In this document: positions 12,508 to 51,460 of the stretch, one piece after another
Position numbering within the stretch: position 1 is the first letter of the stretch
Layout: every line of letters starts with the position of its first letter
Assembly (NCBI GenBank): GCA_028554795.2
Contig: CM068824.1
Coordinates: 158,360,289 to 158,424,288 of the forward strand
DNA: 64,000 nt
Direction: 5' to 3'
Origin: Sinohyriopsis cumingii
Lineage: Eukaryota; Mollusca; Bivalvia; Unionida; Unionidae
Notes under the pieces: generated by a model
Database searches by the model: none
Told to the model about the DNA's origin: nothing
What the model saw: only the letters and a program-made list of their open reading frames with translations
Position numbers and translations under genes: made by a program

Positions 12508-12920
12508 AGTAGTGAAAGGGGCCGCCCTAGGGACAATGGGAATTAGCATTACAGCCCCCCCCCCCCGGGCCACTCTAGGGACAATGCAAATTTAACATGG
12601 GGAAAATTGCTGGGCCACTCTAGGGACAAGGGGAATTAACATGGGGAATATAGTTTGGGCTTGTCTAGGGACAAGGGGAATTGAACATGGGGAATAGAGT
12701 TTGGGCTTGTCTAGGGACAAGGGGAATTGAACATGGGAATAGAGTTTGGGCTTGTTTAGGGACAAGGGGAATTTAACATGGGAGAAAAAAAAAACTACTT
12801 TAGGGACAAGGAGAATTTAACATGGGATTTTTTTTTTTAAATTTTTAAAAAAGGGTAGGCAATGGAAAGTCAATCTCTTTTCGAGACCTATGAGTGGCCC
12901 TGAAAAGGGCCTTTGGGTTT
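12508..12920. repeat. Polinton A left terminal inverted repeat
   Basis: Inverted copy of 31055-31464. It starts AGTAGTGAAAGGGG, has a C/G run at about 12556-12569, then seven units of about 45 bp, each with the core TAGGGACAA (near 12528, 12576, 12619, 12664, 12711, 12756, 12801). It ends with the histone-type stem-loop region. Confidence 0.93.
12874..12911 (-). terminator. Histone-type 3' stem-loop and downstream element (A, left arm)
   Basis: On the minus strand, GGCCCTTTTCAGGGCC (12896-12911) forms a 6-bp stem with a TTTC loop. It is preceded by CCCAAA and followed by ACTCA, then the purine-rich TCTCGAAAAGAGA (12874-12886). This matches the animal histone mRNA 3' processing signal. It lies 25 nt after the stop of the gene at 12936-13169. 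Confidence 0.85.
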
Positions 12921-12935
12921 ATGTTAATGTATCCA

Positions 12936-13169
12936 TTAACATAAAGGGCACCGCTTTGGTCTTCTTCTTGTCCTTAGGCTGCGCCTCACTGTAGGACCGT
13001 AAATCAGCACTTTTTTGAGGCATCCTTGTCTTTCTACGTAGATCCTACGTATCCACAGACTGGTGTCTGTCCTGTGGACAACGGTCCACTTGGATCGGTC
13101 ATACATTAGCATGTCCGTCCTAAACATCATTGAAGACACAAGGGTGGATGATTCAACTGTGGTCCACAT
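12936..13169 (-). CDS. Terminal small basic protein (element A)
   Basis: 77 residues of unknown function. It begins MWTTVESSTLVSSMMFRT and ends with an arginine-rich, cysteine-containing tail (RSLRTRRRP, then CPLC). A TATAAATA box lies 45 bp upstream of the ATG (13214-13221) and a histone-type stem-loop 25 nt downstream of the stop. The homologue at 50881-51111 in element B is nearly collinear (76 residues), so selection on the protein is likely. I see no histone fold or signal peptide. The basic tail suggests nucleic-acid binding, which is inference only. It is the gene nearest to the element end and is transcribed outward. Confidence 0.75.
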   Translation of the reverse strand: MWTTVESSTLVSSMMFRTDMLMYDRSKWTVVHRTDTSLWIRRIYVERQGCLKKVLIYGPTVRRSLRTRRRPKRCPLC

Positions 13170-13388
13170 CTTGAGGCGACGAGAACAGGTGAATCAATGC
13201 AGTGAACTGCGCTTATTTATAGGTAGAGGAAGGATTGAAACGGATTGAGTTCATTCACCAATCCAAACACGCGTTACAAAATTCAGTCAGCCCGCATCCA
13301 ATCCGGAGAGAACAGTCTGTGACGTCACGTTGTCTATATAGATTCGCTAGCGCCTGTGTGTAGTCAATCTATGCGACAGTGATTCAAC
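13170..13388. promoter_or_regulatory. Bidirectional promoter of the left arm (A)
   Basis: TATAAATA on the minus strand (13214-13221) serves the terminal basic-protein gene. TATATAG on + at about 13335 points the other way. Between them is the full CRE palindrome TGACGTCA (13320-13327), conserved in element B at 50723-50730. Confidence 0.7.
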
Positions 13389-13788
13389 ATGACGAAAACT
13401 CAGAAAACGATCCATTGGGGTGCACCTGGCTGCTTTCTTCCTCTGAAGAATCCCTCTCTTCTCCTGAAGAATCCCTCTCTTCTCCTGAAGAATCCTTCTT
13501 TTCTTCTGACTCCTCTTGTTTCTTTTTTTGGCAATCTGGAGACCAATGTCCTTTTTCTTGACAATAATAACAGGTATCTTGACTTTTGTCTTTTCTAGCC
13601 CCTGTTTTTCTTTTTTGATGGTCTGGACACTCTGAAGACCAATGCCCTTTCTTCTGACAGATATAGCAAGTATCTTCACTTTTATCTCGAAAGGAAGGAG
13701 AGTAGTCCGTCGGCTGGTCTGAAGAGAATTTTCTAATGACCCCTCGCAAAGCTCTGATGAAACGTTCCATCTGGGTAGTCTCTTCCAT
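13384..13788 (-). CDS. Zinc-knuckle protein (element A)
   Basis: Two CCHC knuckles, CYICQKKGHWSSEC and CYYCQEKGHWSPDC (C-x2-C-x4-H-x4-C), follow a helical N-terminus (MEETTQMERFIRALRGV). They are followed by an acidic, Ser/Glu-rich repeat tail. I chose the ATG at 13788 because a TATATAAAAGG box lies about 60 bp upstream; an ATG 48 bp further up would sit too close to that box. The fold is that of retroviral nucleocapsid and host RNA-binding knuckles. No reverse transcriptase accompanies it. In A only a remnant of the Q-rich partner gene of this arm is recognisable beside it. Confidence 0.75.
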   Translation of the reverse strand: MEETTQMERFIRALRGVIRKFSSDQPTDYSPSFRDKSEDTCYICQKKGHWSSECPDHQKRKTGARKDKSQDTCYYCQEKGHWSPDCQKKKQEESEEKKDSSGEERDSSGEERDSSEEESSQVHPNGSFSEFSSC

Positions 13789-13922
13789 CGTTGTGCTCCG
13801 TTTGAGAGTGAAATGAATAGTGAAAGGACAAGACACACACCCTTTTATATACGCTGGTCTGCCATGACTATAAATTAGTCTATGGTGTTTAAACTTGAGT
13901 CATTTGACGTTTTGCACTCAAG
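13789..13922. promoter_or_regulatory. Divergent promoter: zinc-knuckle gene / PolB (A)
   Basis: A minus-strand TATATAAAAGG (about 13843-13853) serves the zinc-knuckle gene. A plus-strand TATAAA (13869-13874) lies about 50 bp before the PolB start at 13923. The same arrangement recurs in B at 49192-49324. Confidence 0.65.
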
Positions 13923-16900
13923 ATGAAACGATCCAATTCATTTGAGAAGAAAGAAGAAGAAAGTAAGAGGCAGAAACGTGATCTATCGCCTCGTACCAGA
14001 GCTGAAGTCTTGGCACAAATTCATGCCAGTGATTTTGAAGAGGACATGAGTGAACCAGAATCCAAACCCTCTAAACAAAGTTCGCCACCCTTAGTCAACC
14101 CTGAAAAATACTATTCCATTCGAGAGACGGAAAAGCACTCCTCTAGAAAATTTAGAACCACGGCTTACAAATACACGGTGAAGTTTAAAGATTTCAAGGC
14201 TGAAGTACCGTTAGAGAAAGCAGAAGGGTTCATCACCGGAGTGTGGGATTCTTTGCTCACCACACTCAAGCGACAATGTCAACCCAAAGAAGACGATCGC
14301 TTGAGACTTTCCATACAACACGACGGTTTGAAATCCCCTGTTTGGATTGAGTTTAGCACCCCTGCAGAATTGACCACTTCCAAAGTCATGGACAAGATTC
14401 AACACGTGCAACAATCTAATGACCAGTTTGACATCACCGATGGAAAAGCCACACTGGACATGACCCACGTCTCTCCTCCTCAAGGGACTGGACGCAAAAA
14501 GATGTTATTGGTGAACGAGCTTCGCAACACCAAAACAAGTCTCGTCCGAATTAACAACCCTCAAGACCAGATGTGTTTAGCCAGGGCTATCGTGGTGGGA
14601 CGAACCTATGCCAACAAGAACGACACGGTAGAATCGAAAAGAGCCTGGGAAACTATTCGAAAATCGGACCGAGCCAAACAACGAAGTGAAGCAGAACTCC
14701 TGTTGCAACAAGCCGGACTGTCCAAAGACACACCCTGTGGCATTCCTGAGATGCAAAAATTGCAAGATGTCCTAGCTCTACGATACACCTTGAAAGTGTA
14801 CCCTCAAGAAATGCGCGGGCCTCTGTTGTTTCGAGGGAAAGACTTTAAGGATGGAAAATACATTCATGTCTATTATCACGATGACCATTTCGATACCATT
14901 ACCAATATCACCGGATTCCTGGGATACAGAAATTACTGTGAGAAATGTGACCATGGTTATAACAATCGAGAACAACACAAGCATTGTGGATTGAAATGCT
15001 CAGGATGTTTGGCCTCTTCACCCTGTCTGAGCGAAGGACCAGTGCCTTGTTCAACTTGTCTGCGAACGTTTGTCAGCCCTACCTGTTACCAACAACATTT
15101 GAAGACGCAAGGTTCACAGCAGAAATATGCTTGTCAACTGCTGAGATTGTGCCCTACGTGTGGACAAGGCATACGAATCAATAATGCCAAGGCACACGTA
15201 TGCTCAGGAAAGAAAAAATGTCACATTTGTCACCACATCGTGGACTTGGAACACCAATGCTACGTGCAAAAATACCAGCCCCCACCAGAGAAAGAGGACG
15301 GTCACAAGAAGAAAGGCAATTTCATCTTTTTCGATTTCGAATGCATGCAAGAGACCGGTATTCACATTCCTAATTTCTGCGTGGCTCATCGAGCGTGCGA
15401 GAAGTGCATTCAGGAACCTATCTTCAGTCATTGCCCTCACTGCAGTAAGATTCCCGGAGGGCGTGAAAAAATCTTTCGAGGACCGAACACGTTAGCCGAT
15501 TTTGCCCAATGGGTCTTAGACCCCATTGACAAGACGTGGAGCCAAGAGGAGATCGAACGTTACGGAGATTGTCATCGTCATGCCACGGTGATGGCTCACA
15601 ATTTCTCCGGATACGATGGACAGTTTCTTTTGAGATGCTATACGGAACAAGGCACCGAGCGTCCTAAAGTCACTTTGAACGGAGCCAAAATCATTTTCAT
15701 GCAAGTAGGACAAGTACAGTTAAAGATTCGATGAGTTACTTGGCCATGCCTTTGAGCCGAATGCCTAAAACGTTTGGAATGACAGAAATGGCTAAAGGGT
15801 ACTTTCCACACTTTTTCAATACGGAAGCCAATCAACACGCCGTTCTACCCCATTTACCTGAGGCTCACTATTACGACCCCGACAACATGCGTACCGAACA
15901 ACGAGAAGCTTTCTACGCTTGGTACCAGGCTCACGCCTCGGACCCTTTTGACTTTCAAGAAGAAATGTTAAAGTATTGTCGTTCCGACGTGGACATTTTA
16001 CGACGTTGCTGTGGCAAATTTCGAGAACTGTTCATGGAACACGGAGGGGTCGATCCTTTGAAAGAAGCTTGCACCATTGCCAAAGCGTGTTCCTTAGTGT
16101 ACAGACAACGATTCATGCCTGAAAACACCGTGGCTGTCATCAGCCCTCAATCGACCAACTATGTCAAACGTCAATACTCGGTCAAAGCCCTACGTTGGTT
16201 ACATTACTTGTGCGACAAGGAAGACAAATGGATTCAGCATGCCCGCAACGGAGGTGAAAAGACCATCGGAACGTATTCGGTAGATGGCTGGGACTTAGAA
16301 AACCCCAAGATCGTGTACGAGTTTAAGCGGTTGCTTATTTCACGGATGTCCCGTCTGTTACCCTGATCGTAGCACTAAAAATCAGTTTTTACAACGAACC
16401 ATGGAAGACTTGTACCAGGACACTTGTCAGCGACGTCTAAAGTTAGAACAGGAAGGATACCAAGTGGTGGAAATGTGGGAACACGAGTGCGATCACCGTT
16501 TGAAAACCGATCCCGAGTTTAAACGCCTCGTGGAAAGTTACAAGCTGATGGACCCCCTGAACCCGAGGGATAGTTTGTACGGAGGAAGGACCAATGCCAC
16601 CTGTTTGCTGTACCAAGCCGACGAAGAGAAAGGAGAAGAAATCAAATACTTGGACGTGTGTTCGCTGTATCCCTACGTGTGCAAATATTGTCGCTTTCCT
16701 GTAGGGCACCCACAATTGCTGACGGAATACATCGACCTGAAAAACATTCGACAATACGACGGTCTGATCAAGTGTAAAGTTTTGCCGCACACGGACTTGT
16801 ACCATCCCGTGTTACCTCACCATTGCCAAGGCAAACTGATGTTTCCTTTGTGCCGTACTTGTGCCGAAACGTGCAAACAAGACCAGCCTTGCCATCACAC

Positions 16901-17981
16901 CCAGGAAGAACGGGCCTTGACGGGGACGTGGGTCAGCGTGGAATTGTTCAAAGCTCTGGACATGGGATACGAACTGTTAGAAGTGTACGAAATTTGTCAC
17001 TTTCCCAAGACACAACAATACCACAAAGGTGACCCCACGCAGAAAGGCATTTTCGCCGACTACGTGGATGCCTTTTTGGAACTGAAGCAAGAAGCCAGCG
17101 GCTATCCTTCCTGGTGTCACACTCCCGAAGACGAAAAGACATTCAAAGAGAAATACTATGAACAAGAAGGCATCACTTTAGATCACATCGAGAAAAACGA
17201 AGGCAGGCGATCGTTTGCCAAAGTGATGTTAAATTGCTTGTGGTGAAAAATGGCACAACGTCCGTGTTTACCCAAGACGGAATATTTGACAGAACCTTCC
17301 CGCTACTTTCAGATGATTCACGACACAACCAAATTCATGAAACACGTGGACGTCGTTCGCGAGGATTTGATCTTGGTCAGTTACGAAGAAGATCTGGACT
17401 TTGTACAAGACGACCCTTTTGGAAATGTCATCATTGCGGCTTACGTGACAGCCCATGCTCGCTTAAAATTGTACGAAGCTTTAGAACTGTTAGGGGAACG
17501 CGTCCTGTACTTTGACACGGACAGTTGCATTTACATCCATCACCCGAGTCAACAGCACCCTGACATCGAAGGAGACCGTTTAGGAGCCTGGACAGACGAG
17601 CATCCCGACGACAAGATTCTAAGTTTCGTCAGTGGCGGTCCCAAAAATTACGGCTACGAATACCGGGACAAACAAGGAGAAGTGCACACGACGTGCAAAG
17701 TGAAAGGATTGACTCTGAATTATCGTACCAGTCGAGTGGTGAACTTTGGGGTACTGAAAGAAGCCTTGCAATCGGGAGAGGATGAACACTTTAAAGTGAC
17801 CACCTATCAACCAAACAAGATTGTACGTTTACCCACTCACCACATCGTCAGTCGGCCCTTGGAAAAAGTCTATCAAATCGTGTACCAGAAGCGAGTGCGA
17901 CTTCCCAATCATTTCACCTTACCGTATGGACACGTCGGTATTGGTCTGTATATAAAAAGGAACCCTAGGCAAGATCGATAG
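13923..17981 (+). pseudogene. PolB: Protein-primed family B DNA polymerase (element A)
   Basis: Replicates the linear Polinton genome by protein priming (family knowledge). Visible in order: a Lys/Glu-rich N-terminus; a Cys-rich zinc-binding region (about 14930-15270) with many CxxC pairs; exonuclease I (FFDFEC near 15337); exonuclease II (HNFSGYDGQF near 15597); exonuclease III (YCRSDVD near 15973); palm motif A (DVCSLYP near 16653); the motif B region near 17220; and palm motif C (FDTDS near 17510). About 1,350 codons in extent, as usual for Polinton PolB. The BIR gene follows within 35 bp, and its TATA box lies in the PolB tail. Broken, as in element B. Confidence 0.93.
17945..17955 (+). 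promoter_or_regulatory. TATA box of the BIR gene inside the PolB tail (A)
   Basis: TATATAAAAAG just before the PolB stop, about 60 bp ahead of the BIR-protein ATG at 18014. B has a matching box on its minus strand near 45290-45300. Confidence 0.6.
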
Positions 17982-18013
17982 TTCATGGTGACTACCAAGA
18001 CCAAGCGAACAAG

Positions 18014-18649
18014 ATGAATACTTTCAGAGAAACACAAAACAAGTTTAGAAAGGCACAATTCAAGTGTGGGGCTTCTGAAGTGGAATGCGATTTTGAGCCT
18101 TGCGATGGGTACCATGCTGTACGTTGTGACCTTAGCGATGCCGTAAAGCATCTTGGGAACTTTGTTCTCACTACCCCTATCATGGAAAGTGATGCTGTGC
18201 GTGTCAAACCTGAGGGATGCGAAAGCGATGCCGCTCGTCCTCTTGGATATTTTACTGGGTTTCGTTTTAAAGAGGAATGTTCACCTTCACGTCTACCCCC
18301 CTACGGATGTCATCCAGCTCTCAGTAAACTCCTGTCCATGTCACCCAACCCTCATCGAAACGAACCTGTGAAAGACGAATATTCGTTTCCTGTGCGTTTG
18401 TCGGAATACTGCGACTTTGAAAATCGTCTTCAATCGTTCAAAGGAAAATGGCCTAAGTATCTGGGAGGACCGACCCCCGAAGAATTAGCCAGAGCCGGAT
18501 TTTTCTACTTGGGCGAAGGAGATAAAGTCAAGCGCTTCAGTTGCGGTGTGTCACTTCACCACTGGGAACCGCAAGATTCGGCCTACGTAGAACATGCTCG
18601 ATGGTCACCGAATTGTCATTACTTACCCTTAGTGGGACCGAGACATTAA
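18014..18649 (+). CDS. BIR-domain (IAP-like) protein (element A)
   Basis: 211 residues with a baculovirus-IAP-repeat domain in the C-terminal half: RLSEYCDFENRLQSFKGKWP, then the segment ARAGFFYLGEGDKV, then the zinc-binding C...H...C pattern in HHWEPQDSAYVEHARWSPNC. The N-terminal half has scattered Cys pairs and no domain I recognise; no RING follows. BIR proteins block caspases or act in signalling, and many large DNA viruses carry them. This one is likely a host-derived gene used to delay cell death. The homologue in B is at 44597-45235. Confidence 0.9.
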   Translation: MNTFRETQNKFRKAQFKCGASEVECDFEPCDGYHAVRCDLSDAVKHLGNFVLTTPIMESDAVRVKPEGCESDAARPLGYFTGFRFKEECSPSRLPPYGCHPALSKLLSMSPNPHRNEPVKDEYSFPVRLSEYCDFENRLQSFKGKWPKYLGGPTPEELARAGFFYLGEGDKVKRFSCGVSLHHWEPQDSAYVEHARWSPNCHYLPLVGPRH

Positions 18650-18660
18650 AGTAACTTACC

Positions 18661-19053
18661 ATGTCGTTGACGAAGAAGAAACCAGTTTGGCTAGGAGTCA
18701 AATGTTGGACATCACCGAGGCAAGTATTTAAACTTAATTTCAAAAACGATATTGAATCATTACCTAAAGAACTGCAAGAGAAGATTCACAAGGAAGTTTG
18801 GCAGGGACTTGCCAGAATGAAATCTCAATGGGTGACAGTAGAACTTTTGTGCCGAGAAATTCACAAGAGGAAAGTGAAAAAAGTCAACCAGTGTGTTAGA
18901 TTTCTTTGGGTCAATTGTGCATTCGTCCTATTGTATTACTCTAGACCGTTTAGATCAAAAGAGTTCAGTGACATTCTTGGACGTTACCCTGCATGGCAGT
19001 GGTCAGAAATTATTCACTATGTGGATTACTTTTGCTCTAGGAGAAGATTGTGA
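18661..19053 (+). CDS. F-box-like family member 1 (element A)
   Basis: 130 residues. Near residue 32 it has IESLPKELQEKIHKEV, the LPxEL...I hallmark of F-box N-termini. The rest is helical with Trp/Tyr-rich segments and matches no family I know. The second member at 19075-19593 and three members in B show that this is a small amplified family. If truly F-box-like it would recruit SCF ubiquitin ligase (inference). Confidence 0.55.
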   Translation: MSLTKKKPVWLGVKCWTSPRQVFKLNFKNDIESLPKELQEKIHKEVWQGLARMKSQWVTVELLCREIHKRKVKKVNQCVRFLWVNCAFVLLYYSRPFRSKEFSDILGRYPAWQWSEIIHYVDYFCSRRRL

Positions 19054-19074
19054 ATTGTACGGACTGACTTATTC

Positions 19075-19593
19075 ATGGATACTTTACAAGAGAACATCCG
19101 TGCTTTGCCTGTGGAATTGAGAGAAAGGATTTAAAGAGAGCTGGTCAAAATACAGGTGAAACGTAAGGAACAATTGCATCCGTTACGTCACCAGATCTTT
19201 AACCACTGGTACCTGAATGGTATAAGAGAACTGATTCGTCAGAAATTGTTTCAGTGGTCAGACCTTGTTCAATACTTCCAGGGCCCCGATGATCCACGTG
19301 TTGATCATTTTGGTTACTTGGAGATTCACCTAGTGCAACGCATTGAGGAAGACAAGGTAAAGGATTACCGACATATTTTACGTGGAATCTACTTAGCGGA
19401 AGAGGAAACTTCTAAACAAACTCTGACGTTTCGGTTACAGTATGCAACATTTAGATTCCCCACTGGAGAACGAAGATCTCTGGCTAGAAAGTACGTGTAT
19501 TGTTTCCGAAACAAAGAGACTATAAAAACAGGCTGCCATGCCGCGACTTATGTCGTATGTAATCCAACAGATTCCGTGGAAGGAACTCAATGA
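19075..19593 (+). pseudogene. F-box-like family member 2 (element A)
   Basis: Starts MDTLQENIRALPVELRERI, almost identical to the B copies, then a basic helix, a HPLRHQIFNHWYLNGI segment and a beta-rich C-terminus (TLTFRLQYATFRFPTGERR). It lies between member 1 and the small membrane-protein block. Function unknown; see the copies at 43400-44574. Confidence 0.55.
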
Positions 19594-20254
19594 CCATATT
19601 CAAACCGTGGATCATTACCATCGATTATTACAAGAACTGTATCCATTCAATTTGGGTCGACAAGTGGTGTGTGTCTTAGTGACTTGTTTTCTAGGATTTC
19701 GTTTACCAGCCGATTTCTTGTGGACTCTTTACGATCAGTACTTACCACCTCAATGGCCTTAAATCGTCATGAAAGACTCCTTTTGCTCAAAGCCTTGCGG
19801 TTTCATCTGGATACTTCTCGACCTCTACGGGAAAAAAAGATTAGTCAACTTTTAGCTACCCAAGACGTGTATGACGACGTGTGTGTAGCTTGTGACTTAC
19901 ACCCCCATTGGACAGATGTCCGTACCTGGAAAGAATGGGATTTTGAGGCTTGGACCCAAGAAGTGGCCCAGTATGCACGAGAGTTGTTCAAGGAAAAAAG
20001 TTACTTTTCAGCATGTGTTAGTGACGGTGCCAGAAGAACCCGTCACCCAGGACAGGACTGTCGTGGACAGGCCTGAAAGACCCTTTCGGGAGGATACTTG
20101 TGTGACCTTACCCCCTATAGAACTGGTCAGAACTTTACCCAAAACATGTACAGACACTTGTTTTTATTCCACGTTAATGGTTATCATGTGCCTTTTATCC
20201 TTGTACTTAAGCCTTTGGCTTTTATGTATTTTTGTCTTTCGTATTCATGTTTAA
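19538..20254 (+). CDS. Block of small overlapping genes ending in a membrane segment (A)
   Basis: Three overlapping frames are kept in both elements. 19538-19762 (74 aa) contains IPWKELNDHIQTVDHYHRLL. 19753-20076 starts MALNRHERLLLLKALRFHLD and has a tail with DLHPHWTDVRTW and DFEAWTQEVAQYAREL. 19892-20254, in another frame, ends in a clear transmembrane helix (VIMCLLSLYLSLWLLCIFVF). The middle and last overlap by about 185 bp. An AATAAA follows at 20262. The order and overlaps are the same at 42680-43399 in B, so at least the long frames are probably genes. I recognise no family. Confidence 0.5.
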
Positions 20255-20261
20255 AACATTC

Positions 20262-20267
20262 AATAAA
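20262..20267 (+). terminator. Poly(A) signal AATAAA (A)
   Basis: AATAAA just after the membrane-protein frame and before the ATPase TATA box; mirrored in B at 42667-42672. Confidence 0.7.
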
Positions 20268-20284
20268 CGTGTTCTGAAAAAAAG

Positions 20285-20292
20285 TATATAAA
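20285..20292 (+). promoter_or_regulatory. TATA box of the ATPase gene (A)
   Basis: TATATAAA, 54 bp before the ATG at 20339; conserved in B. Confidence 0.7.
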
Positions 20293-20338
20293 CTCTTGTC
20301 TTGTTTGTTTTCGTGTCACAAGTGACATTCCTGACACT

Positions 20339-21037
20339 ATGGCTACCTCTGCTGTCTCTGCTCCCTCTTCCTCCACTGTCAAACTCATCGAAGAACACTT
20401 AGATCGTGCCATTTGGGAGGCTTTGTATCTTCGCCATCCCTTTAACATGCTCATTGCTGGACCTAGCGGTTCAGGCAAAACCGAATTCGTCAAACGTTTG
20501 ATCGAACATAAACATCATTTGATCGATCGACCCCCTCAGCGCATCGTGTGGTGTTACAAAGAGTGGCAATCGGCGATTCCATCGTGTTTGTGGAAGACAT
20601 TCCTAAAGAAGACGACGAAATCGTCTCTGACTCCCGTCAAACCCATTTGGTCATTTTTGACGACATGTTAGGAGAAGACGAAGAAGAAATTAAACTGGTT
20701 CACGCGCAAAGGGCATCACCGTAATGCCAGTGTCGTTTACATCACCCAAAATTTGTTTCAACAAAGTAAAGCCCATCGCACCATCAGTCTCAATGCGCAT
20801 TACGTGGTCTTGTTTAAAAGCCCTCGAGATAAATCGCAAGTGCAAGTCTTAGCCAAACAGTTAGGAACGCCTTGGCTGACTCAGGCGTACGACGATGCCA
20901 CTCAAACTCCAAGGGCCTATTTACTCGTCGATTTGAAACCTACGACCCCCGATGATTTGCGATTTCGTACCCACTTGCTTCACCACTGGTGCCAAGACGG
21001 AGGGCCTGTCCTGTACACGTCTCCGTCCTCGACTTAA
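20339..21037 (+). pseudogene. ATP: A32-type packaging ATPase (element A)
   Basis: FtsK/HerA-superfamily ATPase that pumps DNA into capsids in related viruses. The Walker A motif GPSGSGKT follows FNMLIA near residue 45. The Walker B region lies near 20660. A sensor-like block, VYITQNLFQQS, follows. The C-terminal domain (LNAHYVVLFKSPRDKSQVQV) is nearly identical to that of B. Own TATA box upstream. The B copy at 41868-42596 (242 aa) shows the full domain layout. Confidence 0.92.
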
Positions 21038-43399: not shown

Positions 43400-43868
43400 G
43401 GCAACTTGATTTTATAGTGTCTTTGTTTCGGAAGCAATAAAGGTAATTTCTAACTAGACATGTTCGTTCTCCAGTAGGGAATTTAAATGTTACATACTTT
43501 AAATGAAACGTCAGAGTTTGTCTAGACGTTTCGTCTTTCTGTAAGCAGATTCCATGTAACAAATGTTGGTAATCCTTTAACATGTCTTCCTCAATACGTT
43601 GCAGTAAGTGAATCTCTTAATAACCAAAATTACGAACGTCTAGTTCATCATCATTCACAAACTGAAAATGTTCAACAAGGTCTGACCACTGAAAAAATTT
43701 CTGACGAATCAGTCCTCTTATACCATTCAGGTACCAGTGGTTAAAGATCTGGTGACGTAACGGATGCAATTGTTCTTTACGTTTGACTTGTATTTTCACC
43801 AGCTCTCGGTAAATCCTTTCTCTCAACTCCTCAGGCAAGCCCAAAATGTTCTCTTGTAAAGTATCCAT
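43400..43868 (-). pseudogene. F-box-like family member 3 (element B)
   Basis: MDTLQENILGLPEELRERIY start, HPLRHQIFNHWYLNGIRGLI middle, and a TLTFHLKYVTFKFPTGE-like end. Closest to A's member 2. Confidence 0.55.
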
Positions 43869-44103
43869 AAGTATATACACTGTTTTTGGAATCCTTGGGT
43901 GGTGGCCAATAGCCTCGTTTACCTTTGTGCCTGATGTAATATCCACTCATAATCAGTCTTCTTATACTTTGGAACAGAGCATAATTTAAAAACGGTTCAA
44001 TAACTTTGCGTTTGCGTTTCACTTGTATTTTGATCAGTTCTCGGTAAATGCGTTCTCTCAACTCCACAGGCAAAGCACGAATGTTCTCTAGCAAAGTATC
44101 CAT
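43869..44103 (-). CDS. F-box-like family member 2 (element B)
   Basis: Starts MDTLLENIRALPVELRERIY, nearly the same first 30 residues as its neighbours, then a different body (LFQSIRRLIMSGYYIRHKGK). Short, about 75-90 residues. Tandem with the other two, 10-15 bp apart. Confidence 0.5.
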
Positions 44104-44115
44104 GAATAGGTCATA

Positions 44116-44574
44116 CTAAATCCTCTTTGGTCTGACACAAGAAATATACTCTTTGCACAAACATGGTTTTCCTTCAGTGTCGAATTTAAATCGTTTAGTC
44201 ACTAATCTACACATTACAATTCGTTCAGAAGTTTCCTCTTTCACTAAGTTGACATTTTGTTCAAGATGTTGGTAATTCGTTAACTCTTCCTCTGGAATTC
44301 GATGCAGTAAGTTTACAATGATGTAGTAGATAGAATCGTCCATAACAAACCAATCCTTTTTAAAACTAGGGGATCGTTGATCAATGTCTGTCCAATGGAA
44401 CACTTTCAATTGAATCAATCCTTGTATAGCCTTCAGGTACCAGTGGTTCAAACACCGGTGACGTAACGGATGCAATTGTTCTTTACATTTCACTTGTATT
44501 TTGACCAGTTCTCGGTAAATGCGTTCTCTCAACTCCACAGGCAAAGCACGAATGTTCTCTTGTAAAGTATCCAT
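44116..44574 (-). CDS. F-box-like family member 1 (element B)
   Basis: 152 residues. MDTLQENIRALPVELRERIY, then HPLRHRCLNHWYLKAIQGLI, FHWTDIDQ, LLHRIPEEELTNYQHLEQN and a basic Cys-containing end. LPxELRERIYREL resembles F-box starts, but the body shows no LRR, WD40 or ankyrin repeats. With two more tandem copies, this is a recently expanded locus. A has two members here. Confidence 0.6.
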   Translation of the reverse strand: MDTLQENIRALPVELRERIYRELVKIQVKCKEQLHPLRHRCLNHWYLKAIQGLIQLKVFHWTDIDQRSPSFKKDWFVMDDSIYYIIVNLLHRIPEEELTNYQHLEQNVNLVKEETSERIVMCRLVTKRFKFDTEGKPCLCKEYISCVRPKRI

Positions 44575-44596
44575 GAACAGATTATGGTAAGTTACT

Positions 44597-45235
44597 TCAA
44601 TGTCTCGGTCCCACTAAGGGTAAGTAATGACAATTCGGTGACCATCGAGCATGTTCTACGTAGGCCGAATCTTGTGGTTCCCAGTGGTGAAGTGACACAC
44701 CGCAACTGAAGCACTTGACTTTATCTCCTTCGCCCAAGTAGAAAAATCCGGCTCTGGCTAATTCTTCGGGGGTCGGTCCTCCCAGATACTTAGGCCATTT
44801 TCCTTTGAACGATTGAAGACGATTTTCAAAGTCGCAGTATTCCGACAAACGCACAGGGAACGAATATTCGTCTTTCACAGGTTCGTTTCGATGAGGATTG
44901 AGTGACATGGGCAGGAGTTTGCTCAGGGCTGGATGACATTCGTAGGGGGGTAGACGTGAAGGTGAACATTCCCCTTTAAAACGAAACCCAGTAAAATGTC
45001 CAAGAGGACGAGCGGCATCACTTTCGCATCCCTCAGGTTTGACACGCACAGAATCACTTTCCATGATAGGGGTCGTAAGAACAAAGTTCCCATGATGCTT
45101 TACGGCATCGCTAAGGTCACAACGTACAGCATCGTACCCATCGCAAGGCTCAAAATCGCATTCCACTTCAGAAGTCTCACACTTGAATTGTGCCTTTCTA
45201 AACAACTTGTTTTGTGTTTCTCTGAAAGTATTCAT
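44597..45235 (-). CDS. BIR-domain (IAP-like) protein (element B)
   Basis: 212 residues. The BIR domain in the C-terminal half runs from RLSEYCDFENRLQSFKGKWP to the zinc site in KCFSCGVSLHHWEPQD and VEHARWSPNC. The N-terminal half has the Cys-containing segment KCETSEVECDFEPCDGYDAV. No RING. About 96% like the A copy by eye. Likely anti-apoptotic or signalling protein captured from a host. Confidence 0.92.
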   Translation of the reverse strand: MNTFRETQNKLFRKAQFKCETSEVECDFEPCDGYDAVRCDLSDAVKHHGNFVLTTPIMESDSVRVKPEGCESDAARPLGHFTGFRFKGECSPSRLPPYECHPALSKLLPMSLNPHRNEPVKDEYSFPVRLSEYCDFENRLQSFKGKWPKYLGGPTPEELARAGFFYLGEGDKVKCFSCGVSLHHWEPQDSAYVEHARWSPNCHYLPLVGPRH

Positions 45236-45267
45236 CTTGTTCGCTTGGTCTTGGTAGTCACAATGAA

Positions 45268-48200
45268 CTATCGGTCTTGCCTAGGGTTCCTTTTTATATA
45301 CAGACCAATACCGACGTGTCCATACGGTAAGGTGAAATGATTGGGAAGTCGAACTCGCTTCTGGTACACGATTTGATAGACTTTTTCCAAGGGCCGACTG
45401 ACGATGTGGTGAGTGGGTAAACGTACAATCTTGTTCGGTTGATAGGTGGTCACTTTAAAGTTTCCATCCTCTCCCGATTGCAAGGCTTCTTTCAATACCC
45501 CAAAGTTGACCACTCGACTGGTACGATGATTCAGAGTCAGTCCTTTCACTTTGCACGTCGTGTGCACTTCTCCTTGTTTGTCCCGGTATTCGTAGCCGTA
45601 ATTTTTGGGACCGCCACTGACGAAACTTAGAATCTTGTCGTCGGGATGCTCGTCTGTCCAGGCTCCTAAACGGTCTCCTTCGATGTCAGGGTGCTGTTGA
45701 CTCGGGTGATGGATGTAAATGCAACTGTCCGTGACCAAGATCAAATCCTCTCGAACGACGTCCACGTGTTTCATGTATTTGGTTTTGTCGTGAATCATCT
45801 GGAAGTAGCGGGAAGGTTCTGTCAAATATTCCGTCTTGGGTAAACACGGTCGTTGTGCCATTTTACCCCACAAGCAATTTAACATCACTTTGGCAAACGA
45901 TCGCCTGCCTTCGTTTTTCTCTATGTGGTCTAAAGAGATGCCTTCTTGTTCATAGTATTTCTCTTTGAATTTTATTTGGTCTTCGGGAGTGTGACACCAG
46001 GAAGGATAGCCGCTGGCTTCTTGTTTCAGTTTCAAAAAGGCATCCACGTAGTCGGCGAAAATGCCTTTCTGAGTAGGGTCACCCTTGTGGTACTGTTGTG
46101 TCGTGGGAAAGTGGCAAATTTCGTACACTTCTAACAGTTGGTATCCCATGTCCAGAGCTTTGAACAATTCTATGCTGACCCAGGTTCCCGTCAAGGCCCG
46201 TTCTTCCTGGGTGTGATGGCAAGGCTGATCTTGGTTGCACGTTTCGGCACAAGTACGGCACAAGGGAAACATCAGTTTGCCTTGACAATGGTGAGGTAAG
46301 ACGGGATGGTATAGGTTCGTGGGAGGCAAAACTTTACACTTGATCAAGCCTTCGTATTGTCGAATGTTTTTCAGGTCGATGTGTTCCGTTAACAATTGCG
46401 GGTGCCCTACAGGAAAGCGACAATATTTGCACACGTAGGGATACAGCGAACACACGTCCAAGTATTTGATTTCTTCTCCTTTCTCTTCGTCGGCTTGGTA
46501 CAGCAAACAGGTGGCATTGGTCCTTCCTCCGTACAAACTATCCCTCGGGTTCAGCGGGTCCATGAACTGGTAACTTTCCACGAGGCGTTTAAACTCGGGA
46601 TCGGTTTTCATACGGTGATCGTACTCGTGTTCCCACATTTACACCACTTGGTATCCTTGCTGTTCCAAATTTAAGCGCCGCTGACATGTGTCCTGGTACA
46701 AGTCTTCCATGGTTCGTTGTAAAAACTGATTTTTAGTGCCACGGTCAAGGTAACAGACGGGACATCCGTGAAATAAGCAACCGTTAAACTCGTACACGAT
46801 CTTGGGGTTTTCTAAGTCCCAGCCATCTACCGAATACGTTCCGATGGTCTTTTCACCCCCTCCGTTGCGGGCATGCTGAATCCACTTGTCTTCCTTGTCG
46901 CACAAGTAATGTAACCAACGTAGGGATTTGACCGAGTATTGACACTTGACAAAGTGGGTCGTTTGAGGGCTGATGACAGTCACGGTGTTTTCAGGCATGA
47001 ATCGTTGTCGATACACTAAGGAACACGCTTTGGCAATGGTGCAAGCTTCTTTCAAAGGATCGACCCCTCCGTGTTCCATGAACAGTTCTCGAAATTTTCC
47101 ACAGCAACGCCGTAAAATGTCCACGTCGGAACGACAATACTTTAGCATTTCTTCCTGAAAGTCGAAAGGGTCCTAGGCGTGAGCCTGGTACCAAGCGTAA
47201 AAAGCTTCTCGTTGTTCGGTACGCATGTTGTCGGGGTCGTAATAGTGAGCCTCAGGTAAATGGGGTAGAACGGCGTGTTGATTAGCTTCCGTATTGAAAA
47301 AGTGTGGAAAGTACCCTTTAGCCATTTCTGTCATTCCAAACGTTTTAGGCATTTGACTCAAAGGCATGGCCAAGTAACTCATCGAATCTTTAAACTGCAC
47401 TTGTCCCACTTGCATGAAAATGATTTTGGCTCCGTTCAAAGTCAGTTTAGGACGTTCGGTGCCTTGTTCCGTATAGTATCTCAAAAGAAACTGTCCATCG
47501 TATCCGGAGAAATTGTGAGCCATCACTGTGGCATGACGATGACAATCTCCGTAACGTTCGATGTCCTCTTTGCTCCACGTCTTGTCGACGGGGTCTAAAA
47601 CCCATTGGGCAAAATCGGCTAACGTGTTCGGTCCCCGAAAGATTTTTTCACGCCCTCCGGGAATCTTGCTGCAGTGAGGGCAATGACTGAAGATAGGTTC
47701 TTCAATGCACTTCTCGCACGCTCGATGAGCCACGCAGAAATTAGGAATGTGAATGCCGGTCTCTTGCATGCATTCGAAATCGAAAAAGATGAAATTGCCT
47801 TTCTTCTTGTGACCGTCCTCTTTCTCTGGTGGGGGTTGGTATTTTTGCACGTAGCATTGGTGTTCCAAGTCCACGATGTGATGACAAATGTGACATTTTT
47901 TTTTTCCTGAACATACGTGTGCCTTGGTACTATTGGTACGTATGCCTTGTCCACACGTAGGGCACAATCTCAGGAGTTGACAAGCACATTTCTGCTGTGA
48001 ACCTTGCGTCTTCAGATGTTGTTGGTAACAGGTAGGGCTGACAAACGTGCGCAGACAAGTTGAACAAGGCACTGGTCCTTCGCTCAGACAGGGTGAAGAG
48101 GCCAAACATCCTGAGCATTTCAATCCACAATGCTTGTGCTGCTCTCGATTATTATAACCATGGTCACATTTCTCACAGTAATAACTGTATCCCAGGAATC

Positions 48201-49191
48201 CGGTGATACTGGTAATGGTATCGAAATGTTCATCGTGATAATAGGCATGAATGCATTTTCCGTCCTTAAAGTCTTGGCCTCGAAACAACAGAGACCCGCG
48301 CACTTCTTAAGGGTGCACTTTCAAGGTGTAGAGTGAAGCTAGGGCATCTTGCAATTTTTGCATCTCAGGAATGCCACAGGGGGTGTCTTTGGACAGTCCG
48401 GCTTGTTGTAACAGGAGTTCTGCTTCGTTTCGCTGTTTGGCTCGATCGGATCGTTGAATAGTTTTCCAGGCTCTTTTCCATTCTGCCGTGTCGTTCTTGT
48501 TGGCATAGGTTCGTCCCACCACGATGGCTCGAGCTAAACACATCTGGTCTTGAGGATTGTGAATTTGGACAAGGCTACGCTTAATGCTGCGAAGCTCGTT
48601 CACCAATAACATCTTTCTGCGTCCGGTCCCTTGAGGAGGAGAGACGTGGGTCATGTCCAATGTGGCTTTTCCATCGGTGATGTCAAACTGGTCATTAGAT
48701 TGTTGCACGTGTTGAATCTTGTCCATGACTTTGGAAGCGGTCAATTCTGCAGGGGTGCTAAACTCGATCCAAACAGGGGATTTCAAACCGTCGTGTTGTA
48801 TGGAAAGTCTCAAGCGATCGTCTTCTTTGGGTTGACATTGTCGCTTGAGTGCGGTGAGCAAAGAATCCCACACCCCAGTGATGAACACTTCTGCTTTCTC
48901 TAACGGCACTTCAGCCTTGAAATCTTTAAACTTCACCGTGTATTTGTAAGCCGTGGTTCTAAATTTTCTAGAGGAGCGCTTTTCCGTCTCTCGAATGGAA
49001 TAGTATTTTTCAGGGTTGACTAAAGGTGGTGAACTTGGTTTAGAGGGTTCGGATTCTGGTTCACTCATGTCCTCTTCAAAATCACTGGCATGAATTTGTG
49101 CCAAGATTTCAGCCCTGGTACGAGGCGATAGATCACGTTTCTGCCTCTTACTTTCTTCTTCTTTCTTCTCTAATGAATAGGATCGTTTCAT
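45268..49191 (-). pseudogene. PolB: Protein-primed family B DNA polymerase (element B)
   Basis: Same architecture as 13923-17981: basic N-terminus (MKRSYSLEKKEEESKRQKRD), Cys-rich region near 47900-48180, exonuclease I FFDFEC near 47780, exonuclease II HNFSGYDGQF near 47515, exonuclease III YCRSDVD near 47130, palm motif A DVCSLYP near 46450, motif B (KVMLNCLWGKMAQRP) near 45870, and the motif C region near 45720. Transcribed divergently from the zinc-knuckle gene. Broken. Confidence 0.93.
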
Positions 49192-49324
49192 CTTGAGTGA
49201 AAAACGTCAAATTACTCAAGTTTAAACACCATAGACTAATTTATAGTCATGGCAGACCAGCGTATATAAAAGGGTGTGTGTCTTGTCCTTTCACTATTCA
49301 TTTCACTCTCAAACCGAGCACAAC
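49192..49324. promoter_or_regulatory. Divergent promoter: PolB / zinc-knuckle gene (B)
   Basis: TATAAATT on minus (about 49239-49246) for PolB and TATATAAAAGG on + (about 49263-49273) for the zinc-knuckle gene; matches 13789-13922. Confidence 0.65.
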
Positions 49325-49850
49325 AATGGAAGAGACTAGCCAAATCGAACGTTTCGTCAGAGCTTTGCGAGGGGTCATTAGAAAATTCTCTTCAGACCAG
49401 CCCACGGACTATCCTTTCGAGATAAAAGTCAAGATACTTGCTATATCTGTCAGAAGAAAGGGCATTGGTCTTCAGAGTGTCCAGACCGTCAAAAAAGAAA
49501 AAAAGGGGCTAAAAAAGACAAAAGTCAAGATACCTGTTATTATTGTCAAGAAAAAGGACATTGGTCTCCAGATTGCCCAAAAAAGAAACAAGAGGAGTCA
49601 AAAGAAAAAAGGGATTTTTCAGAAGAAGAGAGGGATTCTTCGGAAGAAGAGAGGGATTTTTCAGAGGAAGAAAGCAGACAGGCGAAGAAAAAGAAACAGG
49701 AGAAGAAAAGAAGAAGGGAAGAAAGTGAGGAGGAAGAAGAGGAAAAGAGTGTGACGGTGAAGAAATTTAAAAAAACAGAGAGACTAAACAAGGAGACAGA
49801 AGAAGTCAATGAACTTTTTATTAAAGTGTTGTGTTGTGAATTGTGAATTG
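49325..49850 (+). pseudogene. Zinc-knuckle protein (element B)
   Basis: Starts MEETSQIERFVRALRGVIRK as in A. The nucleotide sequence still carries the two CCHC-knuckle units and a long Ser/Glu/Lys-rich tail that runs to about 49780. An AATAAA-like signal lies near 49873. Confidence 0.65.
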
Positions 49851-50020
49851 GATTGTAACAATGGATAAAAGAATAAATTAATGATATAAGGTAAGTGTCT
49901 TTGAGTTTTGATTTTAAAATAAGAAGCTACACTCAAGCACTCATACAAAGACACGTACTATAGGGGGTAAAATGTTTTTTTTTGTTTTTGTTTTATTGAG
50001 TTATTGGCAAATTGAAAGGC
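49851..50020. other. Spacer between convergent arm genes (B)
   Basis: T-rich spacer between the zinc-knuckle gene (+) and the Q-rich gene (-); no gene. It holds poly(A)-type signal on the + side. Confidence 0.5.
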
Positions 50021-50060
50021 TATCACTTTTCGAGAAATGTGGGTGGCCCTGAAAAGGGCC
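50021..50060 (-). terminator. Histone-type 3' stem-loop and downstream element (B, 50 kb)
   Basis: On minus: GGCCCTTTTCAGGGCC (50045-50060), ACCCA, then TCTCGAAAAGTGATA (50021-50036). 26 nt after the stop of the gene at 50086-50661. This copy lies outside the terminal repeats. Confidence 0.87.
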
Positions 50061-50085
50061 TTTTTATTTCGGTGCAGGGGTGAGT

Positions 50086-50661
50086 TCAAGCAATCAACTT
50101 TAACTGCCTTAAGCCTTTGTCACGGCCAAGGCCTACTTCTGGACTGCGTAATGTTGATGATGATTGGGTTGAAATCACTAAGGGTGGTACGGTAGGCTTA
50201 GTCACAGGGTTAACGTGTTTAGCTCGGGAAGGTCGTATTCTCTTCGGTCGTAATAAAGAAGTCTGATACATTTGTTTCAGACTTCTTAACTCCGCTAAAA
50301 TGTCCAACAGTACCGTAACCGTTTGATTTTCACCCTCTTGTTTCTTTGCTGCTACTTCTTCTTGCTGTTGTTGCTGTTGTTTTTTTCTTACCTCTTCTTC
50401 TTGCTGCTGTTGCTGTAGGAGAAAAGCTTGTTCCGCTTCCTTTTGTCGTTGTATAAATTTCTCCAATTCTTCTTTATGTCTCTGTCTAAAATTCTCCACT
50501 TGCGGTAATGAAGAAGGTAACGAAGGTTCCGGAACAAATTCTTGCGAGGTAAGAAAATCCACAAAATCCCAATTCACCTCTTCTGAAAGTAAGTCCGGGT
50601 TCCCTTGGGCGGTCTCCCCTGCTGGTGCACCCCAATGGATCGTTTTCTGAGTTTCCGTCAT
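50086..50661 (-). CDS. Q-rich coiled-coil arm protein (element B)
   Basis: 191 residues. MTETQKTIHWGAPAGETAQG start, a DFVDFLTSQEFVPEPSLP segment, then a Gln/Glu/Lys coiled coil with two Gln runs, a helix LLDILAELRSLKQMYQTSLL and a basic C-terminus (RPKRIRPSRAKH). No family recognised. Shares a bidirectional promoter with the terminal basic-protein gene. In A only a remnant of this gene can be recognised. Confidence 0.65.
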   Translation of the reverse strand: MTETQKTIHWGAPAGETAQGNPDLLSEEVNWDFVDFLTSQEFVPEPSLPSSLPQVENFRQRHKEELEKFIQRQKEAEQAFLLQQQQQEEEVRKKQQQQQQEEVAAKKQEGENQTVTVLLDILAELRSLKQMYQTSLLRPKRIRPSRAKHVNPVTKPTVPPLVISTQSSSTLRSPEVGLGRDKGLRQLKLIA

Positions 50662-50880
50662 GTTGAATCACTGTCGCATAAATTGACTGAACACAAGCGC
50701 TAGCGAATCTATATAGACCACGTGACGTCACAGACTGCTCTCTTCGGATTGGATGCGGGCTGACTGAATTTTGTAACGCGTGTTCGGATTGGTGAATGAA
50801 CTCAATCCGTTTCAATCCTTCCTCTACCTATAAATAAGCGCAGTTCACTGCACTGATTCACCTGTTCTCGTCGCTTCAAG
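50662..50880. promoter_or_regulatory. Bidirectional arm promoter with CRE palindrome (B)
   Basis: TATATAG near 50709-50715 for the minus gene, TGACGTCA at 50723-50730, and TATAAATA at 50829-50836 for the plus gene starting at 50881. Spacing matches A exactly on the terminal-gene side (45 bp from TATA to ATG). Confidence 0.75.
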
Positions 50881-51111
50881 ATGTGGACCACAGTCGAATC
50901 ATCCACCATTGTGTCTTCCATGATGTTTAGGACGGACATGCTCATGTATGTCCGGTCCAAGTGGACCGTTGTCGACAAGTCAGACACCAGTCTGTGGATA
51001 CGAAGAGTGTACGTAGAAAGACAAGGTTGTCTCAAGAGGACACTGATTTATGGCCCTCGAGTAAGACGCAGCTTGAGGACAAGAAGATGCCGCAGATGCC
51101 CTTTATGTTAA
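50881..51111 (+). CDS. Terminal small basic protein (element B)
   Basis: 76 residues: MWTTVESSTIVSSMMFRTDM, then SKWTVVDKSDTSLWIRRVYV, ERQGCLKRTLIYGP, ending RSLRTRRCRRCPLC. Homologue of 12936-13169. Promoter with TATA box and CRE upstream; histone-type stem-loop 25 nt downstream. Unknown function; the C-terminal Arg/Cys cluster could bind nucleic acid or metal (inference). Confidence 0.8.
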   Translation: MWTTVESSTIVSSMMFRTDMLMYVRSKWTVVDKSDTSLWIRRVYVERQGCLKRTLIYGPRVRRSLRTRRCRRCPLC

Positions 51112-51126
51112 TAGATACATTAACAT

Positions 51127-51460
51127 AAACCCAAAGGCCCTTTTCAGGGCCACCCATATTTCTCGAAAAGAGAATGACTTTCCATTGCCTACCCCTTTTT
51201 CTAAATTTAAAAAAAAACAAATCCCATGTTCAATTCCCCCCTTGTCCCTAGATAGACCCACACTTTATTCCCCATGTTCAATTCCCCTTGAGGCTAAAGT
51301 GGCCCAAGACTATTTCCCATGTTAAATTCCCCTTGAGGCTATAGTGGCCCACGATTTTTCTCCATGTTAAATTTCCATTGAGGCTATAGTGGCCCGGGGG
51401 GGGGGGGGGGGGTCTGTAATGCTAATTCCCATTGAGGCTATAGTGGCCCTATTTACTACT
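51127..51460. repeat. Polinton B right terminal inverted repeat
   Basis: 334 bp, inverted copy of 32473-32806, with a long G run at about 51395-51412 and the tip ATTTACTACT. Confidence 0.95.
51136..51173 (+). terminator. Histone-type 3' stem-loop and downstream element (B, right end)
   Basis: GGCCCTTTTCAGGGCC (51136-51151) with CCCAAA before and CACCCA across its end, then TCTCGAAAAGAGA (51161-51173). The match to the animal histone consensus is complete, including both flanks. Confidence 0.9.

What the first reader, a model, noticed from the sequence alone, without database searches (positions are those of the whole stretch)
12874..51173. Polinton genes end in histone-type 3' stem-loops with a histone-downstream-like element
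Seen: eight sites (12896-12911 -, 29120-29135 +, 29915-29930 +, 31064-31079 +, 32782-32797 -, 33802-33817 -, 50045-50060 -, 51136-51151 +) have a (G/A)GCCCT-TTTC-AG(G/A)GC(C/T) hairpin. Most have CCCAAA or AAAC upstream and ACCCA downstream, and all are followed within about 10-15 nt by TCTCGAAAAGAGA or CTAGAAAAGAAATAA. All are in the sense strand, 25-32 nt after a stop codon. Known: this is the layout of replication-dependent histone mRNA 3' ends, which are cleaved by U7 snRNP and bound by SLBP, giving poly(A)-minus, S-phase messages. Inferred: the element taps this machinery for a subset of its genes. I do not know of a description of this for Polintons. Four different gene types share the signal, so it is not just a terminal-repeat feature.
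Basis: partly seen in the sequence, partly recalled or inferred. Interest (0 to 1): 0.95.

Follow-up and report, generated by a model that had tools for sequence, protein, structure and literature searches.

The report
Polinton genes dressed as histone genes
In a large animal genome, virus-like mobile elements (Polintons) end several of their own non-histone genes with the same RNA hairpin and downstream signal as the host's histone genes, and some of these genes also carry a host histone promoter motif, which suggests that the elements borrow the cell's DNA-replication-phase gene programme.

Summary
All eight hairpins are present, on the sense strand, 24-31 nt after a stop codon, and are the only RF00032 (histone 3' stem-loop) matches in the window at E <= 1. 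The window holds two inverted Polintons, 12508-31464 and 32473-51460. Five accessory gene types (X, Y, W1, W2, Z) carry the signal.

In the host genome I read 68 of 75 scored RF00032 hits; all 68 follow Polinton-type accessory genes. Among X, Y and W2 copies not picked by their own hairpin, 104 of 118 keep a perfect stem and 110 of 118 the downstream core.

Host histones settle the comparison. H2B has the identical 16-nt hairpin, H3 and H4 differ in one loop base, and all three have GAAAAGA 13 nt after the stem, the spacing of 7 of 8 window sites.

A remote Polinton contig (PolB 37% identical) has the same layout. There are no transcript data; U7 and SLBP were not found. Five literature searches on hairpins in Polintons, viruses or transposons listed no such report.

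The parts
12508..31464 (+). Polinton copy A (core genes read on +); TIR begins AGTAGTGAAAGG; flanks TATATA/TACATA (target duplication with one mismatch)
32473..51460 (-). Polinton copy B, inverted relative to A; flanks TTTATG/TTTATG (6-bp target duplication)
12936..13169 (-). gene X, copy A (77 aa, Arg/Cys-rich)
   Evidence: purifying selection among relatives
12896..12911 (-). histone-type stem-loop after X_A, at inner edge of left TIR; GAAAAG core 13 nt downstream
   Evidence: RF00032 37.5 bits
28727..29092 (+). gene W1, copy A (121 aa)
28637..28660 (+). histone-like promoter element GGATGTTTTCCTTCACGTCCGCGC before W1_A (one mismatch to the host H2B run), 6 nt before a TATA-like box
29120..29135 (+). 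stem-loop after W1_A (AGCCCT..AGGGCT, pair 1 changed on both sides)
   Evidence: (E 6.4e-5)
29586..29885 (+). gene W2, copy A (99 aa)
29440..29460 (+). 21-nt run TTTCTTTTAGGTCCGCGCGTT identical to the host H4 promoter
29501..29524 (+). 24-nt run GATGTTTTCCATCACGTCCGCGCT identical to the host H2B promoter; TATA 6 nt after the CACGTCCGCGC core
29915..29930 (+). stem-loop after W2_A, one C.A mismatch
   Evidence: (E 0.057)
30371..30382 (+). TCACGTCCGCGC before Z_A, 6 nt before TATAAAA (a second copy at 30302)
30447..31039 (+). gene Z, copy A, interrupted by stop codons
   Evidence: read by eye; last open stretch 62 codons
31064..31079 (+). stem-loop after Z_A, inner edge of right TIR
   Evidence: RF00032 37.5 bits
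32825..33241 (-). gene Z, copy B (open 3' part)
32782..32797 (-). stem-loop after Z_B, inner edge of TIR
   Evidence: RF00032 40.8 bits
33462..33485 (-). 24-nt run GATGTTTTCCATCACGTCCGCGCT before Z_B, identical to the host H2B promoter; TATAAG follows (a further ACGTCCGCGC copy near 33541)
33849..34211 (-). gene W1, copy B (promoter element from 34301 downwards)
33802..33817 (-). stem-loop after W1_B; core 14 nt downstream
   Evidence: (E 0.0062)
50086..50661 (-). gene Y, copy B (191 aa)
50045..50060 (-). stem-loop after Y_B, internal (not in the TIR)
   Evidence: RF00032 42.0 bits
50662..50880 (.). divergent X/Y promoter: TATA-like boxes towards both genes, two ATTGG (CCAAT) boxes, GACGTCAC
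   Evidence: sequence; reading of the boxes by eye and recalled knowledge
50881..51111 (+). gene X, copy B (76 aa)
51136..51151 (+). stem-loop after X_B, inner edge of TIR
   Evidence: RF00032 40.8 bits

Best explanation
The Polintons of this animal express a set of small accessory genes (X, Y, W1, W2, Z) as imitation replication-dependent histone genes. Each ends, about 25 nt after the stop codon, in a copy of the host-type histone stem-loop followed 13-14 nt later by the host-type histone downstream element. W and Z also start from promoters that contain a host H2B/H4 promoter motif (GTCCGCGC) before a TATA-like box. SHOWN: the sequence identity with host histone 3' ends and promoters, the fixed spacing, the presence on five gene types, and the persistence in many copies of X, Y, W2 and Z. 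INFERRED: in S phase the histone transcription apparatus reads these genes, U7 snRNP with its cleavage module cuts a few bases after the hairpin, SLBP binds it, and the mRNA is exported and translated without a poly(A) tail and destroyed when DNA replication stops. Core genes (polymerase, integrase, ATPase) lack the signal and probably use other, ordinary 3' ends. The likely gain is that these proteins are made when the host replicates DNA, as the element's own replication would need.
For: RF00032 at 8 of 8 sites (5 over gathering). Host H3, H4 and H2B 3' ends: same stem, loops TTTT/TTTT/TTTC against TTTC in the window, GAAAAGA at +13 in all three; Rfam gives the host sites 35.9, 37.7 and 38.2 bits, no higher than the best Polinton sites. 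The downstream core is at 13 in 136 of 144 fetched sites that have a core. Copies not selected by their own hairpin: perfect stem X 42/46, Y 48/54, W2 14/18; at least 5 of 6 pairs 117/118; downstream core 110/118; random places 5.3% and 22.7%. All 68 examined of 75 scored genome hits follow Polinton-type accessory genes. X proteins are under purifying selection (median dN/dS 0.125, median dS 0.75; 183 of 231 pairs among 22 intact-length of 28 copies). Promoters: a 24-mer shared with H2B before W2_A and Z_B, and a 21-mer with H4 before W2_A; 77 control pieces shared at most 16 nt. A remote Polinton contig (L003) has the same arrangement.
Against: No RNA evidence. U7 snRNA not identified: the Rfam model found none in the genome, but rang in none of its controls either; 24 of 90 pattern hits were inspected and I judged none U7-like, though one (L106) has a modest 3' fold of -10.9 kcal/mol. 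SLBP not found, in searches without a positive control and with a domain that introns probably split. Pairing of the downstream elements with a recalled mouse U7 5' end is weaker (-7.0 to -9.7 kcal/mol) than for a recalled mouse-like element (-15.5). The promoter motif is not in front of X or Y. Of 118 copies, 8 lack the downstream core and 14 a perfect stem. Many copies are near-identical and so not independent. W1 is known only from the two window copies. The L003 loop is TATC, not the usual TTNN. The Z genes in both window copies look damaged (by eye). Y_B has AATAAA 17 and 88 nt after its stop; only 6 of the 53 other listed ORFs have a poly(A)-like signal within 120 nt, so the claim that core genes are polyadenylated is weak.
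Confidence: 0.86

Rival explanations
1. The hairpin is a DNA-level feature of the element's ends (a palindrome for replication, integration or protein priming), and its likeness to a histone hairpin is incidental.
For: Four of eight sites lie exactly at the inner edge of the TIRs, and the stem is palindromic.
Against: Y, W1 and W2 sites are internal. Orientation is sense to a gene in 8 of 8. The asymmetric downstream core sits at a fixed distance, and host histone genes share it. W-type stems differ from TIR stems by a two-sided change in pair 1.
Confidence: 0.04
2. The signals are bona fide histone 3' ends, but the purpose is not S-phase timing: they give poly(A)-independent export, compact termination between crowded genes, or a barrier to read-through into flanking host DNA.
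For: Terminal genes point outwards, and the signal stands at the inner edge of the TIRs. The space between genes is short.
Against: W and Z also carry host H2B/H4-type promoter sequence, which points to a whole expression programme and not termination alone.
Confidence: 0.25
3. The hairpin is present but transcripts are mainly polyadenylated downstream (as some histone genes are in differentiated cells); the histone route is a minor or relic path.
For: Y_B has AATAAA 17 and 88 nt after its stop, the first of them upstream of the stem. Dual use is known for human H2AC18 (passages of PMC9756948).
Against: W1 (both copies), W2_A and Z_B have no AATAAA or ATTAAA within 120 nt of the stop (X and Z_A were not in that list). 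Hairpin and downstream core are kept in most X, Y and W2 copies.
Confidence: 0.08
4. Chance or a Polinton fragment inserted in the histone array explains the shared promoter sequence.
For: The shared runs are short (21 and 24 nt) and Polintons are abundant here.
Against: Two different runs lie in two different histone promoters, upstream of a TATA box, without other runs above 16 nt shared with the window's Polintons in the stretches compared, apart from the 3' hairpin; the greatest of 77 control pieces was 16 nt.
Confidence: 0.05

Closest known systems
Replication-dependent metazoan histone genes (Rfam RF00032; U7 snRNP / SLBP pathway)
   Same: 6-bp stem, 4-nt TTNN loop, hairpin 24-31 nt after the stop, purine-rich element 13-14 nt after the stem; identical stem (X, Y, Z) and downstream core to this host's H2B, H3 and H4; promoter runs shared with H2B (W2, Z) and H4 (W2).
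   Different: The genes encode no recognisable histone; they belong to a virus-like mobile element.
Polintons / Mavericks (adintoviruses)
   Same: PolB, rve integrase and chromodomain, A32-like ATPase, TIRs starting AGTAGT, 6-bp target duplication.
   Different: I found no description of histone-type 3' ends on Polinton genes in five searches (capped lists, open-access papers only).
Viral RNA said to hold a Histone3 motif (SARS-CoV-2, PMC7786107, seen in a search listing only)
   Same: The term Histone3 is used for a viral sequence.
   Different: As far as the listing shows, a motif scan of one RNA genome; here, gene-by-gene 3' ends with the downstream element, in many copies, matched to the host's histone genes.
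Bracovirus-borne histone H4 genes (recalled, no call)
   Same: Histone-related gene content in an insect virus-like element.
   Different: There the protein is a histone; here the regulatory signals are histone-like and the proteins are not.

Membership tests
Histone-type mRNA 3' end (RF00032 / U7-SLBP) | 6-bp stem with 4-nt loop that fits the RF00032 covariance model | tested here: met
   5 of 8 over gathering, 8 of 8 at E <= 0.057
Histone-type mRNA 3' end (RF00032 / U7-SLBP) | Located shortly after the stop codon on the sense strand | tested here: met
   24-31 nt for 8 of 8; 18 or 24 nt in 28 of 30 X copies picked by protein, the other two with changed stems
Histone-type mRNA 3' end (RF00032 / U7-SLBP) | Purine-rich histone downstream element at fixed spacing | tested here: met
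   offset 13 in 7 of 8 window sites, 14 in one; 13 in 136 of 144 fetched sites, where a core was required; core in 110 of 118 copies
Histone-type mRNA 3' end (RF00032 / U7-SLBP) | Same signals as the species' own histone genes | tested here: met
   H3, H4 (four loci), H2B (one locus); H2A and H1 not read
Histone-type mRNA 3' end (RF00032 / U7-SLBP) | Downstream element pairs with the species' U7 snRNA | tested here: inconclusive
   U7 not identified
Histone-type mRNA 3' end (RF00032 / U7-SLBP) | Cleaved, poly(A)-minus, SLBP-bound, S-phase mRNA | not testable with these tools
   no RNA data
Replication-dependent histone gene | Encodes a core or linker histone | tested here: not met
   Pfam finds no histone family at E <= 0.01 in X, Y, W1, W2, Z_B or Z'
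Polinton / Maverick | PolB, retroviral-type integrase, A32-like packaging ATPase | tested here: met
   PF03175, PF00665 and PF00385, PF04665
Polinton / Maverick | TIRs and 6-bp target duplication | tested here: met
   B exact TTTATG; A one mismatch
Polinton / Maverick | Major and minor capsid proteins, adenain-like protease | not tested
   most mid-element ORFs scanned gave no Pfam hit; capsid and protease genes were not searched by structure

The most novel reading that the evidence does not exclude
A virus-like DNA element has taken over the whole histone gene programme of its host, promoter (H4/H2B-type GTCCGCGC element, recalled to resemble the HINFP site) and 3' end (stem-loop plus U7 element), for a class of its own genes. 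These are then histone-locus-type, S-phase, poly(A)-minus viral mRNAs, and the strategy is old and widespread among animal Polintons, since a Polinton contig from another source, 37% identical in PolB, shows the same terminal layout.
Probability: 0.6. Interest if true: 0.95.

Novelty: new variant of a known kind. Interest (0 to 1): 0.92.

Why it matters
Histone-type 3' ends are held to be almost private to histone genes in animals (recalled). A mobile element with five non-histone gene families of this kind gives a natural test of what suffices for histone-type processing, of how a DNA virus or transposon can tie its genes to host S phase without poly(A), and of whether animal Polintons are live viruses with regulated gene classes. 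It also means that RF00032 scans of such genomes can report Polintons, and that poly(A)-selected RNA-seq would miss these genes.

Tried and rejected
Searches of the IMG/VR viral contigs gave no relative: two hairpin patterns and one hairpin-plus-element pattern, PolB as a protein and as an alignment, integrase alignment. The one hairpin hit (L001) lies in a contig whose ORFs look like a bacteriophage's and has no RF00032 match at gathering; I take it as chance.

U7 snRNA: Rfam model (controls silent too) and a pattern (90 hits, fewer than the 138 of its reversed control). 24 were inspected (20 fetched, 4 returned). I judged none U7-like from the fold of the 50 nt after the Sm-like site; L106 (-10.9 kcal/mol, TCTTTTCG) came nearest. 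Left open.

SLBP: Pfam family and human RNA-binding domain, none; no positive control, and introns probably split the domain, so this is uninformative.

Considered and rejected: a TIR-only DNA palindrome; a captured histone gene (no histone protein). In one search the W1 query was out of frame; with the right frame W1 matches none of the 98 fetched loci, so it has no count outside the window. In one search the W2 query was also out of frame, and three loci (L009, L025, L027) did not match near the hairpin; I assigned them to Z' from its match 159-183 nt upstream. Z' is not in the window; I call it Polinton-type because a W2-like gene lies upstream of it in L025, L027 and L050 and its downstream sequence resembles the TIR of the window. 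The genome-wide count of GGCCCTTTTYAGGGCCAC did not complete. The genome RF00032 search scores only its best candidates; none of the 68 hits read was a host histone, although the three host sites read score 35.9-38.2 bits, so its 75 hits are no census.

Papers: PMC9756948 by passages; all others only in search listings (on hairpins; 132 and 135 on the promoter motif, without Polinton terms). Several listings were cut: 25 of 33, 20 of 21, 15 of 21, 15 of 326, 8 of 10 and 8 of 30 papers shown.


Full report
WHAT IS THERE. The window (C1:158360289-158424288 of a 2.90-Gb assembly) holds two Polintons in opposite orientation: A at 12508-31464 and B at 32473-51460. Their TIRs begin AGTAGT; B has an exact 6-bp target duplication (TTTATG) and A one with a mismatch. 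Among the ORFs scanned, Pfam finds DNA_pol_B_2, rve, Chromo, Pox_A32 and BIR. Of 1701 PolB relatives 120 were listed, among them proteins of oysters, clams and sea urchins and of a coral adintovirus.

THE HAIRPINS. All eight lie where stated, on the sense strand, 24-31 nt after a stop. RF00032 scores 5 of 8 over its gathering score and all 8 at E <= 0.057, with no ninth match at E <= 1. The GAAAAG core starts 13 nt after the stem in 7 of 8 and 14 nt in one. Four sites form the inner edge of the TIRs, so both terminal genes of each copy, which point outwards, end in the same signal; the other four are internal. Hairpin genes: X (76-77 aa, Arg-rich), Y (191 aa), W1, W2 and Z; none matches a histone family in Pfam. 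Of 58 ATG-started ORFs of 90 aa or more between 12000 and 52000, spurious ones included, 5 have the hairpin within 120 nt: W1 twice, W2, Y and Z_B; X and Z_A fall below that cut-off and were placed. Of the other 53, six have AATAAA or ATTAAA within 120 nt, among them the rightmost core ORF of A (27856-28416, 86 nt after its stop).

SISTER COPIES. A genome search with RF00032 scored 75 sites. I read 68 of these (and the loci): 68 of 68 follow Polinton-type accessory genes: 28 X, 17 Y, 12 Z, 8 Z', and 3 more assigned to Z' by an upstream match. Seven were not read. That set is chosen by the hairpin, so I made two tests that are not. Thirty X genes picked by protein: 28 of 30 fit the hairpin pattern, 24 nt (25 copies) or 18 nt (3) after the stop, and the other two have base changes in the stem. 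Gene copies in fetched loci whose own hairpin did not bring the locus in: perfect stem in X 42/46 (this includes the 30 just named), Y 48/54, W2 14/18; at least 5 of 6 pairs in 117 of 118; downstream core in 110 of 118; 18,465 random places in the same loci give 5.3% and 22.7%. W1 was found in none of the 98 loci. Many copies are near-identical, so these are not independent events. X copies that differ more (median dS 0.75) show a median dN/dS of 0.125 (183 of 231 pairs, first 65 codons, 22 intact-length of 28 copies), so the gene was kept by selection.

THE HOST'S OWN HISTONES. The family PF00125 gives 150 scored matches, most in tandem units of about 8.3 kb. H3 and H4 end with GGCCCTTTTTAGGGCC 28 and 27 nt after the stop, H2B with GGCCCTTTTCAGGGCC, the very 16-mer of five of the eight window sites. 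In all three, GAAAAGA starts 13 nt after the stem. Rfam gives these 35.9, 37.7 and 38.2 bits, against 37.5-42 for the five best window sites. One copy of H2B and four loci of H3/H4 were read; H2A and H1 were not.

A REMOTE REPLICATE. A PolB-alignment scan of the genome-contig collection (one genome for each of 84,980 prokaryote species) gave two Polinton contigs filed under bacterial bins, which I take as contaminants. L003 (PolB 37% identical, integrase 36%; rve and TBP by Pfam) has RF00032 at 35.8 bits, 28 nt after the stop of an 89-aa C2H2 zinc-finger ORF (8042-8311), with GGCCCTTATCAGGGCC (loop TATC) and AAAAAGA 13 nt after the stem, ahead of a stretch with CCATTGTCC repeats like that of the window's TIRs. 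It is the only RF00032 hit in that 2.9-Mb bin (150 of 547 candidates scored). L002 (6.2 kb) has none; I saw no terminal region in it but did not test for one. So one of two remote contigs shows it.

MECHANISM. Shown: sequence identity to host histone signals at both ends of genes, fixed spacing, maintenance. Inferred: U7/SLBP processing, poly(A)-minus mRNA, S-phase timing. Human histone pre-mRNAs need the stem-loop and the downstream element, the latter paired with U7 (passages of PMC9756948). The host U7 and SLBP were not identified, and pairing with a recalled mouse U7 is moderate.

NOVELTY. Five literature searches on hairpins in Polintons, viruses or transposons and two on the promoter motif listed no report of histone-type 3' ends or promoters in Polintons; lists were capped and the library lacks most subscription papers. 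It is a Polinton by its tested features, and the gene-expression strategy is the new part.

Noticed in passing
G000 C8:71.02-71.21 Mb, C61, C370, C410 (L128-L131): Tandem arrays of about 4.27 kb, with one GGCTCTTTTCAGAGCCAC hairpin per unit (153 sites genome-wide for the pattern with any of A, C, T at loop position 4, a few elsewhere, two of those read being Polinton-like; reversed control 0). In L129-L131 the gene is not a histone (a coiled-coil-like ORF, hairpin 30 nt after its stop), L129 has AAGTCCGCG before TATATAAA, and Pfam gives no match over a cut-off: perhaps a second non-histone gene family with histone-type signals.
   Followed up: partly
G000 C9:84.68-84.74 Mb and C4:126.91-127.00 Mb: Copies of gene X at about 21.15-kb spacing and of PolB at about 18.5-21 kb (one gap 37 kb), which suggests head-to-tail arrays of whole Polintons (coordinates).
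   Followed up: no
G000: 149 of 150 scored X genes have no stop inside, and the 93 scored PolB candidates listed are 97% or more identical over residues 1-303, most without stops: a recent burst.
   Followed up: no
L003:7192-7695 (-): This Polinton encodes a TATA-binding protein (PF00352, 96 bits).
   Followed up: no
window 18014-18649 (+): A Polinton gene with a BIR (inhibitor of apoptosis) domain, 75.6 bits.
   Followed up: no
L035: A 332-aa open frame that joins a protease-like N-terminal part (adenain-like by eye) with the C-terminal part of Z, ending in the hairpin: probably a deletion fusion.
   Followed up: no
L132 about 1480-1510: The host H3 frame has no ATG just before TKQTARKS; the sequence reads as if a splice acceptor lay inside codon 3 (by eye).
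   Followed up: no
window 13347-13838 (-) and 49197-49754 (+): Convergent partner of Y in copy B: an ORF with two CCHC-like zinc knuckles (by eye; no Pfam hit at E <= 0.01) and a poly(A)-like signal 65 nt after its stop.
   Followed up: no
PMC7786107 (search listing): A paper on SARS-CoV-2 cis-acting RNA elements holds the word Histone3 13 times.
   Followed up: no
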